Of a stretch of DNA of 64,000 nucleotides, positions 9,998-60,928 are shown one piece after another (positions within the stretch are counted from its first letter, which is position 1; each line of letters begins with the position of its first letter). The notes beneath the pieces are model-generated. The model had not been told where the DNA came from. It worked only from the letters and a program-made list of their open reading frames with translations, and ran no database searches. The translations under genes and the position numbers were made by a program. This DNA is from Cystobasidiopsis lactophilus. Its lineage: Eukaryota > Basidiomycota > Agaricostilbomycetes > Agaricostilbales > Chionosphaeraceae. The DNA lies in contig BCIO01000005.1 in assembly GCA_001599975.1 (NCBI GenBank), forward strand, positions 2,094,508 to 2,158,507, written 5' to 3'.

Positions 9998-10385
9998 GGC
10001 TCGACTTTCAGACTTTGAGATGTGATCTTAGATAAAATTAGCTTCGAAATCAAAGAAGTTTTGGCAGCTGGCGTCGGACGTCGAGTCTCGAGAGGCAATC
10101 TCCGCTTCCGCCTCGAAGTGGCGGAGAGCAAATTTATGGGATTCTAGGAAAGCTTGGCTTGGGATAGAGTACAAGAGGCCGCCTCAGCGATAGTTGCAAA
10201 ACGATCAAGTGCGCAAGAATACAAGCAATCCGTAGTGCTGCCCAATACTCGCTGACATGCAGCGAGGAATAAAGGGGTAGCCCAAGATAGATGGTGGTAC
10301 AGCTCGACCATGTTGGCCGAAAGAGGGGATGGTGTGGGCGCCGAGACGCCAGGTGGTGACGCAGAAGGACGTGGCCAAAAGGCTC
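9998..10385. other. Intergenic between tandem minus-strand genes
   Basis: It holds the promoter of the IQM-like gene and the 3' flank of SANT copy 2. From 10168 rightward it belongs to the inverted duplication. No further gene is seen. Confidence 0.5.
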
Positions 10386-11240
10386 TCATTTGCCACTGCG
10401 GTGCGCCTTGGTTGCCTTGCTGGCCGTCTTCTTGGCGCCCTTGGTGGCTGCCGACCTGCCACCTTTGGTTGGCTTCACTCGTAGCACGTTTTGGCTGCCG
10501 TCCCGCTTGTACAAGCTGTTGTACTGGTTCTTGATGAACATGTCGGTGCGAATTTTGGTGGACTCGTCCTTGATCATGTTGGCGATTTTGGACCAAGACA
10601 CTCTCTTCTCCGGAAGCGTAGCTTTGACCTCGCGCAGAACGATGTCCCATTCTGGCTGGGTCAGTGGGCTCTTGTCTGTTTCCAAAGAGCAAGGCACAAT
10701 GAGCTTTCGTGTGTGTGTGAAATGTAAAAGTGAAAGGAAACGAACCCGATGGGGCAAGGTAGAGTTTGTAACGCTCCCGGCATTGCTTTTCGGTAGCCCT
10801 AGTGCTCAACACCGCCGTGATATCTGACCACCGCACGTTCTTGTTGGCAGGATTTTGAGCGCGCCACTGCTCAACCGCCGCGACCAAGTTGGCGTCCATT
10901 GTTTCGCTCCAAAGCCGTCTAGATGGTTCGGACAAGCCGCCCGAGGTCATAGGAGTGACGGAAAGCGGGGACAAAGGGATGAAGGGGCCGTCGCCGTCGC
11001 CGTTTTGGCTCTGGTGGTAGGCCGACTCTTGAGCGGCGGGCTCGGTGGCAGCGGCAAAAGAAGAGCCCGAGGCGACAGGACTGGCAGGACGTGGAGACGG
11101 AGCCAAGTAGNNNNNNNNNNNNNNNNNNNNNNNNNNNNNNNNNNNNNNNNNNNNNNNNNNNNNNNNNNNNNNNNNNNNNNAAGTAGGAGGTGGCCGACAG
11201 GTCGTCTTCGTACAGGCTCTGGGGGTAGGAGTAGGCCAAC
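10168..11240 (-). repeat. Inverted segmental duplication, right arm
   Basis: Reverse complement of 55-1054, interrupted by the 70-N gap. The match ends near 10168, inside the shared 3' flank. Upstream of 11240 this copy continues into further coding sequence that the left arm lacks. Confidence 0.85.
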
Positions 11241-52434: not shown

Positions 52435-55400
52435 ATGCTCGCCGGCGTTGTTTACCTCTTTTTGGCCGCCGCCGCCGCTCAAGCCACTTTGGCGTCAACT
52501 TCTGGCCACTTCCCGCACCGACACCATGCAGCAAGAGCACTGCAAGAGAGGGCCAATACCATCAAGGAGCGGCCAGCAACAGTTGAAGTGGTCCCCAACA
52601 CATACATCGTAGAGTTGGACTCTGGGGCCAACCCTTCGTCGTTAAGCAAGCGAGCAGCGCAAGCGGCTGTCCATGTCAGTCTACATCTCATCTCATCTAT
52701 TCTGTTCGTCTATGGTGGCTCATCGTGAGAGAGAATTTGTGCAGGCCTCGTTCTTTTCAGCACTGCAGTCTCACAGTATCCCTTACTCTGTTCAGCAAGA
52801 GTACACCGATGCACCAGAAATCTTCCACGGTGCTACTATCAAAGTCAACAGTGAAGCAGATGCAAGCTCCATCGCCAACATGTCAACAGTCAAGGTGGGC
52901 GGTGGTTTATGCGGCGCCAAGATCGTCGGCTGATCGTGTCTGCAACTTTGCAACAACAGAACATGTGGCCCGTGTACAAGATTCAAATGCCCAAGGTCAC
53001 GGATGAAGTGAGAATTAAGAAGCGTGGGGCCGGATGGGATTGGGGCAAGCCGGACGTGTATCGTATGTGTTTCCGTCGATGGCAAGTCTACAAGTCTGAC
53101 TCTAGCGCCAGCTCCCCATCAAATGATCGGCGCTGACAAGGTTGGTTAATGCTTTTGACTAGACGATTACTTACTCATCACCGGAATGGCAGCTCCATGC
53201 GGAGGGCATCACCGGCAAAGGTCAGGTTGTGGCTGTCGTGGACTACGGCATCGATTACAAGTGGGGCTCCCTTTGTTCAGTCGACTTGTTCTAATTGGCC
53301 ATGCAGACATCCTGCCCTCGGCGGGTGCTTCGGTAAACGCTGCAAGGTTCAAAAGGGTTTGTCCCTTCACACTTGAACCTAATGACTTCAACTTATCTCG
53401 CCATAGGCTACAACTTTATTGGTGATAGTAAGCATCGCTTACGAATTACGTACAAAGCACTCTCATGTCCTCCGCTGCTCAGCTTACAGCGATGCATTTG
53501 CTGGAAATGGCGATCCCTATGCGAATTGCCTTGGCTCCACACACGGTCTGCTCCAATCTGACTACATTAGACTGTGGCTTAGTCCTCACCCAACCTAGGT
53601 ACCCATGTCGCGGGCCTAATCGCCGCAAAAGATGTCGGCACTGGCTTCAGTGGTGTGGCGCCAGATGTGATGAACTTTTACTTCGACCCTATCAAGCATT
53701 GCTGACGAAATAACCACCAGGCCACTCTTTACGGTCAGATCTAATGCTACCAAACCAGGAACCTAGTCTCACTCTCACCACACAGCCTACCGAGTTACCG
53801 ACTGCAATGGGCTCTCTTTCACCAGCTTGGTCATGGCTGGTCTATTGAAGGCTTATGCTGATGGAGCTCGAATTATCAACACCTCAGTCACCAGCATTGG
53901 CGGTTGGAAGGAGGATGCCTTGGCCGTTGTTGCTGATCGATTGGCCGCCAAAGGCGCCATTGTCGTCACCAGCACTGGAGATGCGGGAGCACAGGGTATG
54001 TCTGTTCCTGCATGATGATTGGTGGATGCTCATGTCCTGTTCACAGGGGCCTTTTATGTCGAGCAGTGGGTTTCCTGGTCGCGCCCAACACACATGCTAA
54101 CCCTGCGGACTAGACCCGGCACTGCTGAGACAGCATTAAGTGTCGGTAGTGTTGAAGTGCCGTGAGCTCTTTTCTGCGAGGAGCAGATTTGGGTACTGAC
54201 TGGGAACTCAGGAAATATACCACATTTACAGTTGAAGTTTCTTCCGGCCACGCTTTTGGTCGCAAAATCAAAGGCCATGGGGCCAAAGACATCGTGAGCC
54301 TATTCAGTGGCTTCGGCACCAGAGCTCAAGCTGGCGTAGAATTTCTATGGCAGCCACAGCTACGGGGATGGAACATACGGACTTTACGTGACGTCGAACG
54401 ACACGACGATCACGGACGACGCCTGCTCTCCTCTCCCTAATACGACACCAGATCTTTCGGGGAAGGTTGTGCTGGTCAGGCGGGTAAGTCAACGAGACCT
54501 TTGCTTCATTGACTGGGCTGACTTCTTTCAAGGGTGGCTGTTTCTTCGACGAGAAGTATGCCAACGTAGCTGTGTACAACGTGAGCTTTCTAGGCCTCGC
54601 TTTCGCCGTATTGCGCAGAGTCTGATCTCCACCCAATGTCAAGGCGGTTGGGATTCTTAGTCAGTCCAGCCTTACATCCGCGGTGTAGAGCCTCATGTTT
54701 GATTCTGCAGTTTACAACACACCCGATACCGCTGTCATGTACGAAGATGGCATTTTTTACGGATACCCCAGTGGCAACGGTGCTTTGATCGACGAGGCAG
54801 ACGGTCTTTATGTATGTTCAATTTAATTCGCTCTATTCCCGACCCTTACTCGTGTTTCTCAGCTGGTAGACCAATGGGCACGCGGTGTAAAAACCGAGCT
54901 CACGTTTCCTAAGGAGCTGACAAGTGTGCCGAATACCGACACCAGCGGAGTCAGGTTGGTTGCCTCTCGATTTATCTCTAGTCCTCTACCTACAAGACCT
55001 CCGTGCAGCTCCATCAGTCAATATGGACCTACATTCGAACTTCGACCAGTGCCGAAGCTCCTGGCTCCTGGCAGTAGGTGCTCGGAGATTTTGGCGCACA
55101 ACGTCTGAAATTTGCACAGGCAACGTCTTGTCGCTGGCTCCTCTTCAATATGGCGGCTACACAGTCCTCTCTGGGACATCTCAAAGTGCTCCTATTACCG
55201 CTGTAAGTTCGGACAGTGGACTTCGCAAAGATTTCCTAACGCCGGAACTGGCAGGGGGCCGTCGCCTTGTACTCCAGTGTCAAGCCCATCAAGGCCGGGC
55301 ACAGCGGCTTCGCCTCGACCGTCACCGCGGCCCTGTTGAATAACGCAGTTCCTCTTCGCGTTCGCAACCACATCACTCCTCTTCCCCAACAAGGTGCTGG

Positions 55401-56621
55401 CGTCCTCAACATCTATGCCGCCATCCACAGTCAGACCGAGCTTTCGACTTCTTTCTTGCTCCTCAACGATACTAGATACTTTCAGGGCAAGCAGAAGTTT
55501 ACAGGTGGGTTTTTTGCCTGCGATCTGAGCAACGAAATGACCGGACCACGTTTCAGTCCAAAACAAGTCGCCCAAGACGTTGACCTACAAGCTCGCCCAT
55601 CTACCAGCTCTATCGCTGCTGCCCTTTAACAAGGTGCGACCGTTCCTATGCCCAGATTCCTAGGCTCACTTCAAAGCCAGAATTCCAACTACCCATCACT
55701 GACTCCCGCCACCAGCCCGCGCGGAGCAACCGTCAAGTTCAGCCAGTCGACTTTGCGCCTGAAGCCTGGTCAGAAAGCGACGGTTCAGGTCACGTTTACG
55801 CCTCCAGCCGGTTTGCCTGCTACGACCTTCCCTCTCTACTCCGGTTTCGTACGAGTGCAAGCTTCGGGACAAGTCGCCACACTTCCCTATCTGGGCATGG
55901 CAGCAGCGATGTACGACATGCCTGTTCTTGACCACGGAGCTGCCATCGTCGGTGCTACGGTCCCGACTCTTACCGATTCGTCGTACAACATACAGACCGG
56001 GCCAGCGACTTACTCAATGACCAACGGAGATACACCTTTGGTCTTCTTGCGTTATACAGGTCAGTTCAAGATGGTTGCGGTTCTCCTCCCGAACGATCGC
56101 AATTGACGCTAGTCGCAGCCGGGACTGCCTTTGTTTCGTTGGACGTGATGGAAAGCATCACCACCTACGTCCCGTCTCTCCCGATAACCAATGCCTCACG
56201 CCACCGAAAAGCTCAAGATCCCAAGAAAGACCAAATTGGCGTCTTTGCGACGTCTGCCTACAGTCCACGGAGCGGAGTTGCCAGTCAGGCGCTGGCGCAA
56301 AACAGCATTCAGACGTCCATCGTTGCTTGGGACGGCACCTTGGCGGACGGCACGGTCCTACCAGACGGCTCTTACAAGCTCAGACTCCGGTTTGCCACTC
56401 TCACGTTGTTGTTCCAATTCACGGAAAGCTCACGCTGCTTCCGCAGCGCTCTCAAAATCACTGGCAACCCGGCGATAGACGCCGATTACGAGTGCGTGTT
56501 GCTAAATCCGCGCTCTCGCGATGCCACCCCTCGTAACTCATGCCGTCTGCCCAACAGATCTTGGCTTTCTCCGACTGTCGTGATCCAGAGGAATACTGGG
56601 TGCGGCCGGAAGCGCTGCTAA
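52435..56621 (+). CDS. Secreted subtilisin-like serine protease (S8) with PA and Fn3-type regions
   Basis: Many-exon gene (I count roughly twenty short exons; not every border is fixed). It begins with a signal peptide (MLAGVVYLFLAAAAAQATLA) and an I9-type propeptide (VVPNTYIVELDSG). The triad is visible: Asp in GQVVAVVDYGIDYK (about 53225), His in HGTHVAGLIAAKD (split by an intron, 53550/53600), and Ser in LSGTSQSAPITA (about 55170). A PA-type insert lies between His and Ser (around 54700, with DGIFYGYPSGNGALID). The C-terminal part has beta-rich Fn3-like sequence and ends with DGTLADGTVLPDGSYKLRLR, then SWLSPTVVI. The order fits fungal minor extracellular proteases (Vpr/C5a-peptidase type). 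No inactivating change was noticed. Confidence 0.85.
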
Positions 56622-57388: not shown

Positions 57389-58322
57389 ATGAAGTTCGGA
57401 CTTGCTACCATCCTGTTGACTCTGGCCGCCTGCGCTGTTGCTGCTCCCGTGCGTCATCCCCCGGGACTGCCTCTTCGATTTTTGCTGTGCCGATGCTTAC
57501 CGGACGTCAACAGGTGCCGACTGCTCAACCGCAGGCGCGCGATTTGGCGGAGCGTCAGCTCGGCGGCGCCGGCACTTCCAGTGTTGCCAGTGGCGACAGC
57601 GGTCGACCGCGTGCGTGGAAGCGCGAAGAAATTGAGAACGTAGGCTGTCCGACTGTCGCTTGCGAACTATCGCTTGAGTGCTGACGTTAAACAGGCTCTT
57701 CGGGAGCGTCAGCTCGGTGGCGGCGGAACTTCGAGTGTCGCCAGCGGTGATAGTGGCAGGCCTCGCGCATGGAAGCGTGAGGAAATCGAGAAGGTGTGTT
57801 TATACGCTCGAGATTGGCCGAACACTGCTGATCCAACGCAGGCCCTTCTGGAGCGTCAACTTGGTGGCGGCGGAACTTCGAGTGTCGCCAGCGGTGATAG
57901 TGGCAGGCCTCGCGCATGGAAGCGTGAGGAAATCGAGAAGGTGTGTTTCTCCGCTCGATAATGGCCGAACAAAGCTGATCCAACACAGGCCCTTCTGGAG
58001 CGTCAACTTGGTGGCGCCGGAACTTCGAGCGTTGCTAGCGGAGACAGTGGCAGGCCTCGCGCATGGAAGCGTGAGGAAATCGAGAAGGTGCGAGCATTGA
58101 TAGTCATAATCGAATTGTTCTCATCCTTAGCGCAGGCTTTGCTCGAGCGTCAGTTGGGCGGTGCTGGGACCTCCAATGTTGCCAGCGGCGACAGTGGCCG
58201 TCCACGAGCATGGAAAAAGGACATTGTGGAGCGTGCTGTAAGGTCTATTCTTTTGGGATATTGCCCTAGTCAGTTCTGACATCCGATTCTAGGCGGTCAC
58301 CCCGGCTGTCCAGTTCGCATAG
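57389..58322 (+). CDS. Secreted tandem-repeat peptide precursor with Kex2-type sites
   Basis: Seven exons, all joined in phase 0, give 204 aa: 57389-57448, 57514-57639, 57695-57793, 57842-57940, 57989-58087, 58136-58237 and 58293-58322. Exon 1 is exactly the signal peptide MKFGLATILLTLAACAVAAP. Exons 2-6 each carry one repeat unit of about 33 residues: ERQLGGGGTSS, then VASGDSGRPRAWKREEIEK. Units 1-4 end their core in Lys-Arg; unit 5 has Lys-Lys (AWKKD). Exon 7 is a short tail, AVTPAVQFA. The layout fits a precursor cut by Kex2 in the Golgi to release about 31-residue peptides. There is no CaaX box (so not a basidiomycete mating pheromone) and no Tyr in the core. The biological role is unknown. 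Confidence 0.88.
57695..58135 (+). repeat. Three tandem 147-bp exon+intron units
   Basis: 57695-57841, 57842-57988 and 57989-58135 are each 147 bp: a 99-nt exon and a 48-nt intron. Exons 3 and 4 are identical over their last 77 nt or so, and the introns at 57794 and 57941 are clearly homologous. Flanking units at 57514 and 58136 are more diverged, with 55-nt introns. Confidence 0.92.
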
Positions 58323-59507
58323 ACACCTTCCCTCCGCCTCCCAGCATGTCTACACACTACTCTCTTCTTCTACCTAAAATGGCCCACATCACTGGCCAGT
58401 TCGACATTTCAGATTACCCACAGCTTTTGGCATTTGCCACCGCACATTAGATTCCACTCCCACACACGCCATTCACCCGCCTCACCACACACCACGCCTC
58501 GGCAAGCTCCTACAGCCTGTCCTTCACTCAACCCTTTAATTTCACACCACACGAATTCTTCGAGACACCCCTCTTCTTTTTGGACCTTTTCAGTTTTGGC
58601 ATCTTTCACGTCTCGAAGAAGCCGCCTCTGGCTCTGCCACCCCTCTGGGCCAGCGGCAAAGGACACTCTTGTTAAACAACCACTTTTCACCTTTCATTAG
58701 GGACCCTTTCCTCCTTTGCCTCTCTGAGGGCATCTGGGTCCCCGGCCTTGTTTTTCAAGCGCTTTTTAAATCTTCTTTCGGGCTGTGTTCGCTTTATATC
58801 TTACTGGAGAGGTGAAGAAGGATGGTTTTATCGTTATGTCGCTTGTAACGTTCAACTGTTTTCAAACCCTCGGTTGTTAATGCAACACAAACTTGTTGTT
58901 TTTCATGGATACTCTGCTCTCTGCGTGCACTCCTCGGTAGCCTTTAAGTATGAGGAGTCGGCGTGCAAGGCTTTGAGAGCTCAGACAGAATGCGACTTCG
59001 GGATTGCAATAAGCAGGAGCGGGGTGGGGTTCCGGCTCAGTCCCGACCTTGCGCCTAGACACCAGCGACTTGACCGAGGCCGTCCCGCAATTGCTGCTTT
59101 TACTCCTGCTTCTCTTGCTGTAATGGTATGCGACAAACTTTGAGAGATGCCAGGCCAGTGGCAAGGGGTGTTTTGAGGTTTTGGAGGGAGCGCGAGAAGG
59201 AAGGGTGTGCGCTGGAGGTTCTTTTGGTGGGTATGTGACACGCGTGGTAAAAGAAGGTGGTGATAGAGTGGGTTGACGAACATGCTGATGGGAGGATATT
59301 TACTGGAAAGGATGGAGAAGACAGACGGTGATAGACTTTTGGGTGGTTTACTTTTCTTGGATATCGAGATTGAGTCCTAGACGGCGATATAGACACGAAA
59401 GCTGGAGATGAGGAGGCCTTTTGGCGCGCGCGACTTCCTAGTAGGAGTAGTCGTAGCGAGGAGCGTTCGACGAGACGAAGCTGTTTTCGCCACCCAGCCG
59501 AGTCAAG
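58323..59507. other. Long convergent intergenic region
   Basis: About 1.2 kb between two convergent genes. The first part is rich in C and A with T-rich runs and has no start-to-stop structure with a domain. I see no gene here; long 3' UTRs are likely. Confidence 0.45.
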
Positions 59508-60338
59508 TCACGCGATCGACAACAACCGGGCAAAGAAGAGGGAGACACACGTGGGCAAAGGGGGACGAGATCGGTAAGGAGGCTGAGTGGGCTTGAAGCT
59601 TTGGATGTAGCCCGAGCGGCCAGCCCTACGGTTCTGCGTGTGGGCGGCGGTGAATAATGCGCATTGCCAAGACTGCTTCCGGGACTAAAGCAAGAAACTC
59701 ACGCTGAGCCAGGTGCGCACTTGCTTGTCAGTCATGCCAGTAGCAGCGCAGGCCACAGCGATGGCTTGCGAGGAGGGGTACAGCGCGGCGGCGATGAGGT
59801 CCTCCAAGACAGAAATTTGCTCGACGGTGTAGTTGGTGCGCCTGGGCTTGGAGAGCGAGGGCTGCTTCTGCTGCTCGGGGTAGTGGTGGAAAGCGTAGGC
59901 CGGGCTGGTGGCGGCGTACTGCTTGTAGCAAGGCACGTTGTCCGAGTCGAGGTAGGTCTCGAGCGAAGGCTTTTTGGTGGGAGCGAATGGCATCGTCATG
60001 CCGTAACCGTAGCCCCCGCCGCTTGCAGAGGGGGAGTAGCCAGGCATGGGAGGGGGCGCGTAGCCGTACGACTTGTAGCTGGCGCTGGACGAGCTGGAGG
60101 CGGGCGAGAGGCTGCTGCCTCGGTTGGGCTCGAAATCGGCGTAGCTGTAGCGCTTGGGAGGGAAGCTGTAGCTGTCCAGGGTGTCATACTCGCTTTCGAG
60201 GGAGGGCAGCGCGGGGTGAAGGGGAGCGGCGCTGGCGGTGGCAAACGAGCGGCGCCTGTCGATGGGAGCCAAGCTGTAATCGCCCTCGTTGACGTGGATG
60301 TCGTGGAGCGAGGGCAGTCGGCGACTGAAGTGGTTCAT
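59508..60338 (-). CDS. Homeodomain transcription factor
   Basis: Two exons (60338-59703, 59633-59508) give 253 aa. The N-terminal 165 residues are Ser/Tyr/Pro/Gly-rich and probably disordered (for example GYSPSASGGGYGYGMT). The homeodomain starts at KPRRTNYTVEQISVLEDL. Helix 3 is TDKQVRTWLSNRRAG, completed across the intron 59634-59702. The spacing is the standard 60-residue type, without a TALE insertion. The recognition helix keeps the invariant Trp, Asn and Arg but has Leu and Ser where WFQ is usual. The short C-terminus is Pro-rich. No second homeodomain gene lies next to it, so it is not an obvious mating-type HD pair. Confidence 0.85.
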
Positions 60339-60928
60339 TTTGTTGACTGAAGGGAGAGCGCCCTGTTCTTTTTGGTGTGATGAGGGTGCGAGGGAGGTCG
60401 TCGCGATGTGACAAGAGCTGAAAATCCTTGGTCGGGGGAGGCGGGTCACATTCTCCGTTCAGTCGTCTTCCATCTCTCACCAAGGCAGCAGCCGCGAGAG
60501 ACAAGGTTCGTCGCAAGGCACGCTCACACACCATTTCAAAAGTCGAACCTTGTTCGTTAAATGCAATTCCGACGTAGCGTCGATGAGATCTCGTTGGGCT
60601 TTGAGTTCGGCTCGCTTCCGATCTACCTGTACGTGCCCAATGCAGAGGCCAGCAGACGCGCACATTGGAGGCCAGCGACTCAGCGGAGACGATCTCGATT
60701 GGCTCCCTCTTGACCCGTGCTTTCGGCTTGTGGCGGCAGCCTTCTCAGATTCCGGCGGATCGAGCCTGCTTTCGTCAAGGCCTTCAAAGAATAGAGCATG
60801 TTGTGGCGTTAGGACAAGAGCGCAAACCCACCACAACTTGAGCAGAAGTGGCGCTCGAGGTGCTGCCAGAGCTTGACGCCTCTTGTTACAAACGCTCATG
60901 CTCTGGATATCCTGAAAGGCAACAATCG
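60339..60928. promoter_or_regulatory. Divergent promoter region, homeodomain and Mpv17-type genes
   Basis: About 590 bp between divergent genes. Short frames on both strands show no family motif. Confidence 0.4.

What the first reader, a model, noticed from the sequence alone, without database searches (positions are those of the whole stretch)
57389..58322. A secreted repeat-peptide precursor in which each peptide is its own exon
Seen directly: a one-exon signal peptide, then five repeat exons, all introns phase 0, with a conserved core GTSSVASGDSGRPRAW followed by KR in four units. Kex2-processed repeat proteins are known in fungi as a class, but this repeat sequence and the strict one-exon-one-peptide layout are not ones I recognise. 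Phase-0 borders mean units can be gained, lost or skipped with no frame damage, so peptide dose or variety could change by recombination or alternative splicing. The role (signalling, adhesion or host interaction) is inference.
Basis: partly seen in the sequence, partly recalled or inferred. Interest (0 to 1): 0.86.

Follow-up and report, generated by a model that had tools for sequence, protein, structure and literature searches.

The report
Secreted fungal repeat-peptide precursor gene
This looks like a fungal gene for a secreted protein that is cut into five nearly identical small peptides, each peptide core lying within its own exon; the class of protein is known, the peptide had no convincing match in the places searched (none of them a fungal collection), and its job is not known.

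Summary
A seven-exon model (57389-58322, +) gives one 204-residue open frame, six phase-0 introns, a signal-peptide exon, five repeat exons and a short tail exon. The repeats are constrained as protein: the units of exons 2 and 5 differ by 16 synonymous and 0 amino-acid changes in 72 nt, and 21 of 24 third codon positions vary against 2 and 2. All six introns carry generic fungal splice signals. It meets the three sequence features that define a Kex2-processed repeat protein (KEP), a known fungal class.

My refinement: LxER|Q precedes all five cores, and the one unit with an unrelated upstream segment keeps it. The likely product is a 21-residue peptide, QLGG(A/G)GTS(S/N)VASGDSGRPRAW, perhaps with pyroglutamate first, as reported for mushroom KEPs. 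The exon borders then lie in a discarded acidic spacer (EEIEK^ALLER) and one exon holds one peptide.

Exons 3-5 are young tandem copies, so the uniform phase is partly inherited. No fungal collection could be searched; species, receptor and function are unknown. New variant (gene layout) of a known kind, moderate interest.

The parts
57389..57448 (+). exon 1: signal peptide MKFGLATILLTLAACAVAAP
   Evidence: strongest 11-residue hydrophobic stretch of the protein starts at residue 8; no SignalP available
57449..57513 (+). intron 1, 65 nt, phase 0
   Evidence: GTGCGT...CAG, CTTAC branch-like site at -18
57514..57639 (+). exon 2: lead segment plus unit 1, ends KREEIEN
57556..57618 (+). predicted mature peptide 1, QLGGAGTSSVASGDSGRPRAW
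   Evidence: inside the block 57550-57621, which also holds ER and K
57640..57694 (+). intron 2, 55 nt, phase 0
   Evidence: GTAGGC...CAG, CTGAC at -14; retention gives stops
57695..57793 (+). exon 3: ALRER + core + KREEIEK
57710..57772 (+). predicted mature peptide 2, QLGGGGTSSVASGDSGRPRAW
57794..57841 (+). intron 3, 48 nt, phase 0
   Evidence: GTGTGT...CAG, CTGAT at -14; copy of intron 4; in frame and open if retained
57842..57940 (+). exon 4: ALLER + core + KREEIEK
57857..57919 (+). predicted mature peptide 3, QLGGGGTSSVASGDSGRPRAW
57941..57988 (+). intron 4, 48 nt, phase 0
   Evidence: GTGTGT...CAG, CTGAT at -14; 7 of 48 bases differ from intron 3; stop if retained
57989..58087 (+). exon 5: ALLER + core + KREEIEK
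58004..58066 (+). predicted mature peptide 4, QLGGAGTSSVASGDSGRPRAW
58088..58135 (+). intron 5, 48 nt, phase 0
   Evidence: GTGCGA...CAG, CTCAT at -16; in frame and open if retained
58136..58237 (+). exon 6: ALLER + core + KKDIVERA
58151..58213 (+). predicted mature peptide 5, QLGGAGTSNVASGDSGRPRAW
58238..58292 (+). intron 6, 55 nt, phase 0
   Evidence: GTAAGG...TAG, CTGAC at -17; stop if retained
58293..58322 (+). exon 7: tail AVTPAVQFA and stop; no CAAX box

Best explanation
A spliced nuclear fungal gene for a secreted Kex2-processed repeat protein. Shown by sequence: one frame through seven exons, an N-terminal hydrophobic leader, five units under strong protein-level constraint, a dibasic site after each core and LxER|Q before each core. 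Inferred: the leader sends the precursor into the secretory pathway; a kexin cuts after KR/KK and after the single arginine of LxER; a Kex1-type carboxypeptidase trims the basic residues; the new N-terminal glutamine may cyclise to pyroglutamate. Each molecule would then yield five 21-residue, cysteine-free, hydrophilic peptides ending in tryptophan, plus discarded acidic spacers EEIEKALLER. The introns between units sit inside the spacer, so duplicating or losing a 147-bp exon+intron unit changes peptide number without touching frame or core. Most likely role: a diffusible peptide signal, released in several copies per transcript. The role is the weakest step. The figure below is for the splicing and the precursor class; the exact 21-mer is less sure, and the rivals overlap with it, so the figures do not sum to 1.
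For: Gene model and phases. Exon 2 unit v exon 5 unit: 16 synonymous, 0 nonsynonymous; summed over the 10 pairs pS 0.64 and pN 0.03; third positions 21 of 24 variable v 2 and 2; the same block read in the other two frames shows the opposite pattern in both and stops in one. Six of six introns have GTRNG (background 771 of 6682 GT) and YAG with CTNAY (background 277 of 8890 AG). Five dibasic sites, one after each core and none elsewhere; no Cys after the leader and no Tyr in the protein. The one unit with an unrelated upstream segment (exon 2, ARDLAERQ) keeps LxER|Q. In Coprinopsis cinerea KEPs, pyro-Q peptides, C-terminal-tryptophan cores and products apparently cut after single arginines were reported (PMC9769878, passages).
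Against: No RNA, peptide or homolog evidence; no fungal collection was available (searches confirmed no relative, but those collections are viral and bacterial/archaeal). Cleavage after LxER is monobasic and unproven; its support from unit comparison rests on one informative unit. The paper that reports such KEP peptides found no specific function for those it examined. The splice patterns were chosen after reading the introns, and introns 3 and 4 are copies. Weak database matches to the precursor were set aside as chance: Pfam ThsB_TIR (E 0.0018, 19.1 bits v cut-off 21.2) and UBA_DHX29 (15.4 v 27), PDB BURRH (E 0.062 and 0.17). No receptor or processing gene was recognised among the segments scanned.
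Confidence: 0.75

Rival explanations
1. Same precursor, cut at dibasic sites only: the products are 31-residue peptides such as EEIEKALLERQLGG...RPRAW, each assembled from two exons.
For: KR/KK are the canonical sites and lie after each core; KREEIE[KN] is near-identical in exons 2-5.
Against: The first unit has a different upstream segment yet keeps LxER|Q before the core; this is one informative case, since the other four units share the spacer.
Confidence: 0.25
2. An uncut secreted repeat protein of the cell wall or matrix, in which KR is incidental.
For: Repeat, glycine/alanine/serine-rich composition.
Against: Dibasic site after 5 of 5 cores and nowhere else; no hydrophobic C-terminus for a GPI anchor (tail AVTPAVQFA; anchor requirement recalled); no cysteines after the leader.
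Confidence: 0.12
3. A dikaritin-type RiPP precursor whose cores are cyclised by UstYa-type (DUF3328) enzymes.
For: Same precursor plan: leader, repeats, Kex2 sites.
Against: No tyrosine in the protein. No DUF3328 match among 46 distinct ORF segments scanned besides the precursor (E thresholds 0.1, 0.01 in 28-30, 0.001 in 39); five single HxxHC matches in six frames of the window, no two closer than 4 kb on one strand (motif recalled). Small exons could have been missed.
Confidence: 0.04
4. A mating pheromone.
For: Resembles alpha-type precursors in plan; a homeodomain gene lies about 1.2-1.4 kb downstream on the other strand.
Against: No C-terminal CAAX box, as prenylated basidiomycete a-type pheromones carry (CAAX recalled); no XA/XP run after KR (it reads EEIE or DIVE), so the STE13 signature is absent. 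One homeodomain gene alone is not a mating locus, and no pheromone-receptor family was matched in the segments scanned.
Confidence: 0.05
5. A decayed minisatellite or non-coding repeat that only looks like a gene.
For: Exons 3-5 are young tandem copies.
Against: pN 0.03 v pS 0.64; complete frame and splice sites.
Confidence: 0.01

Closest known systems
Kex2-processed repeat proteins (KEPs) of fungi (PMC6339444: passages and one section; PMC7329392 and PMC9769878: passages)
   Same: Signal peptide, internal repeats, Kex2 sites between repeats; Coprinopsis examples with pyro-Q starts, C-terminal W cores and apparent single-arginine cuts.
   Different: The core letters were in no held paper. One exon per peptide with borders in the spacer is not described in the passages seen; the words intron and exon do not occur in the main text of the first two papers, the third has intron once and exon never.
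Ustilago maydis Rep1 repellents (as told in PMC6339444 and PMC7329392, passages)
   Same: Several similar peptides cut by Kex2 from one secreted precursor.
   Different: Rep1 peptides are given as 37 residues long and water-repellent; these are hydrophilic (GRAVY -0.63 and -0.52) and shorter.
Ascomycete alpha-pheromone precursors (passages in PMC6339444)
   Same: Repeats, KR sites; acidic residues after KR and a tryptophan-ended core, as in some.
   Different: No XA/XP (STE13) run after KR; no homology shown.
Frog (Xenopus laevis) magainin and caerulein genes (PMC3731216, passages)
   Same: Tandem-repeated peptide-encoding exons in one precursor gene; near-identical copies.
   Different: Vertebrate skin peptides; unrelated in kind, sequences not compared.

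Membership tests
Kex2-processed repeat protein (KEP) | signal peptide | tested here: met
   Hydrophobic leader in exon 1, peak 11-residue hydropathy 2.65 starting at residue 8 v at most 1.11 beyond residue 30; no SignalP run
Kex2-processed repeat protein (KEP) | internal repeats | tested here: met
   five units
Kex2-processed repeat protein (KEP) | Kex2 sites between repeats | tested here: met
   KR x4, KK x1, one after each core
Kex2-processed repeat protein (KEP) | actual cleavage and secretion | not testable with these tools
   needs peptidomics
Dikaritin RiPP | DUF3328 (UstYa) gene nearby | tested here: inconclusive
   none in 46 distinct ORF segments; no close HxxHC pair; small exons may be missed
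Dikaritin RiPP | tyrosine in the core, as in the YXIX cores of ustiloxin-type precursors (PMC7329392, passage); its need for the cross-link is recalled | tested here: not met
   no Tyr in the protein
Alpha-type pheromone precursor | STE13 XA/XP signature after KR | tested here: not met
   EEIE or DIVE follows
Basidiomycete a-type pheromone | C-terminal CAAX (recalled) | tested here: not met
   ends AVQFA

The most novel reading that the evidence does not exclude
A peptide cassette gene: the fungus keeps each mature peptide in one symmetric exon whose borders lie in a throw-away spacer, so copy number, and perhaps dose by exon skipping or in-frame retention of introns 3 and 5, can change freely, serving an unrecognised pyroGlu...Trp peptide signal in a lineage not expected to use alpha-type signals.
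Probability: 0.15. Interest if true: 0.65.

Novelty: new variant of a known kind. Interest (0 to 1): 0.42.

Why it matters
Most KEP peptides have no known function (PMC9769878, passage), and gene structure was not discussed in the passages seen. A gene with one peptide per exon gives a direct test of how such arrays grow, since exon and intron clocks can be read side by side, and it names an exact 21-residue peptide to look for.

Tried and rejected
Own-genome search: no genome held. Relatives in viral and in bacterial/archaeal contigs: 12 and 20 pattern matches, none confirmed; these are not fungal collections, so the negative says little. PDB: two weak matches, rejected. Pfam on the precursor: two matches below cut-off, rejected; NCBIfam on the precursor: none. 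Rfam at gathering threshold and tRNA scan of the window: none. CAAX-ended short ORFs: four regex matches in the window, no chance level computed, not followed. Paper search for three pieces of the core: 0 papers. Searches for exon-per-repeat fungal precursors: searches gave 0 papers; others (10 listed of 9,143; 4 of 4; 10 of 142; 3 of 3) showed none in their listings; apart from the four papers named as read, only listings were seen. Intron homology, 15 pairs: introns 3-4 clearly related (0 of 500 shuffles reach); introns 1-2 (0 of 500) and 3-6 (4 of 500) also score above shuffles, more weakly, and are unexplained. GC3 of the coding sequence (0.59) is a little below that of six other segments (0.63-0.85), so codon bias gives no sign of high expression.

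Full report
What is there. The window carries eukaryotic nuclear DNA: ORF segments match Trm732/THADA, Nup84, BING4, Urb2 and SacI-type domains. That it is a fungus, and probably a basidiomycete, is my inference from these genes and from short introns of about 50 nt; the species was not identified. At 57389-58322 (+) a seven-exon model gives a 615-nt coding sequence and a 204-residue protein with no internal stop. All six introns are phase 0 and all exons are multiples of three.

Is the splicing believable? Each of the six introns begins GTRNG (771 of 6682 GT dinucleotides of both strands of the window do) and ends YAG with a CTNAY branch-like site starting 14-18 bases before the intron end (277 of 8890 AG have such a site). 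I chose these generic fungal patterns (recalled) after reading the introns, and introns 3 and 4 are copies of one another, so this counts as five independent agreements at most. Retaining introns 2, 4 or 6 brings in stops and intron 1 shifts the frame; introns 3 and 5 are 48 nt, in frame and open, so their retention would not truncate the protein.

Is the repeat coding? Over the 72-nt block ERQ...AWK, the ten unit pairs give pS 0.64 and pN 0.03; the units of exons 2 and 5 differ at 16 synonymous and no amino-acid-changing positions; 21 of 24 third positions vary, against 2 of 24 and 2 of 24. Read in the other two frames the same block shows the opposite pattern. The hypergeometric value 2.6e-11 given there treats columns as independent and the block was picked as the conserved part, so I read it as a strong sign and not as a probability. 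Units are named by exon. The exon 2 and exon 6 units are old (pS 0.70-0.87 to every other unit); the exon 3, 4 and 5 units are young copies (pS 0.11-0.39), and intron 3 differs from intron 4 at 7 of 48 bases, while the other introns show no clear homology except a weaker excess over shuffles for the pairs 1-2 and 3-6, unexplained. So the array of exons 3-5 most likely grew by tandem duplication of a 147-bp exon+intron unit, and the shared phase of the middle introns is inherited.

What does it make? Exon 1 is a hydrophobic leader. One dibasic site follows each core and there is none elsewhere in the protein. Upstream of each core stands L-x-E-R|Q: LAER, LRER, LLER, LLER, LLER. The first unit is preceded by an unrelated segment (VPTAQPQARD) but keeps this motif; it is the one informative case, since the other four share the spacer. 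Cutting after this arginine gives QLGG(A/G)GTS(S/N)VASGDSGRPRAW, 21 residues, net charge about +0.8, hydrophilic, with no cysteine (two of the three sequence forms computed). In Coprinopsis cinerea KEPs, peptides with pyroglutamate first, cores with tryptophan last, and products apparently cut after single arginines were reported (PMC9769878, passages); the same paper reports no specific function for the peptides it examined. On this reading the borders between repeat exons (EEIEK^ALLER) fall in a discarded acidic spacer, and one exon holds one peptide.

What it is not. No STE13 run and no CAAX end, no tyrosine, no DUF3328 match in the 46 other distinct ORF segments scanned (49 were sent, three of them twice) and no close pair of HxxHC motifs (motif recalled). 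The upstream gene is a subtilase: an fn3_5 match above cut-off and a Peptidase_S8 match just below it. No kexin P-domain was matched in the segments scanned, so this neighbour is not evidence for the processing enzyme.

Known or new. The class is known and large: 7878 KEPs in 1345 of 1461 strains (PMC7329392, abstract passage), most of unknown function (PMC9769878, passage). The three core pieces searched are in none of the held papers. The layout was not described in the passages I saw, and two of the three KEP papers do not use the words intron or exon in the main text, so it may simply be unreported; KEP genes with introns probably exist, since Coprinopsis ones were amplified from cDNA as intron-less sequences. 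Exon-per-peptide genes are known from frogs (PMC3731216, passages). I therefore file it as a new variant of a known kind with moderate interest; function as a diffusible signal is inference.

Noticed in passing
55-1054 and 10168-11240: Inverted repeat of about 1 kb, 97-98% identical in its two pieces, with scattered Ns at the window start and a 70-N run at 11111-11180; an assembly fold-back or a true inverted duplication.
   Followed up: no
52500-56620 (+): Multi-exon subtilase-type gene (Peptidase_S8 piece just below cut-off, fn3_5 above cut-off) directly upstream in the same orientation; extent judged by eye from ORFs.
   Followed up: partly
59490-60458 (-): Homeodomain gene (Pfam E 1.9e-6); an intron after KQVRTWLS appears to join to NRRAGRSG, completing the motif (sequence, read by eye; lower end approximate).
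   Followed up: partly
57794-57841 and 58088-58135: Introns 3 and 5 are in frame and stop-free, so retention would add 16 residues to the spacer without truncation.
   Followed up: no
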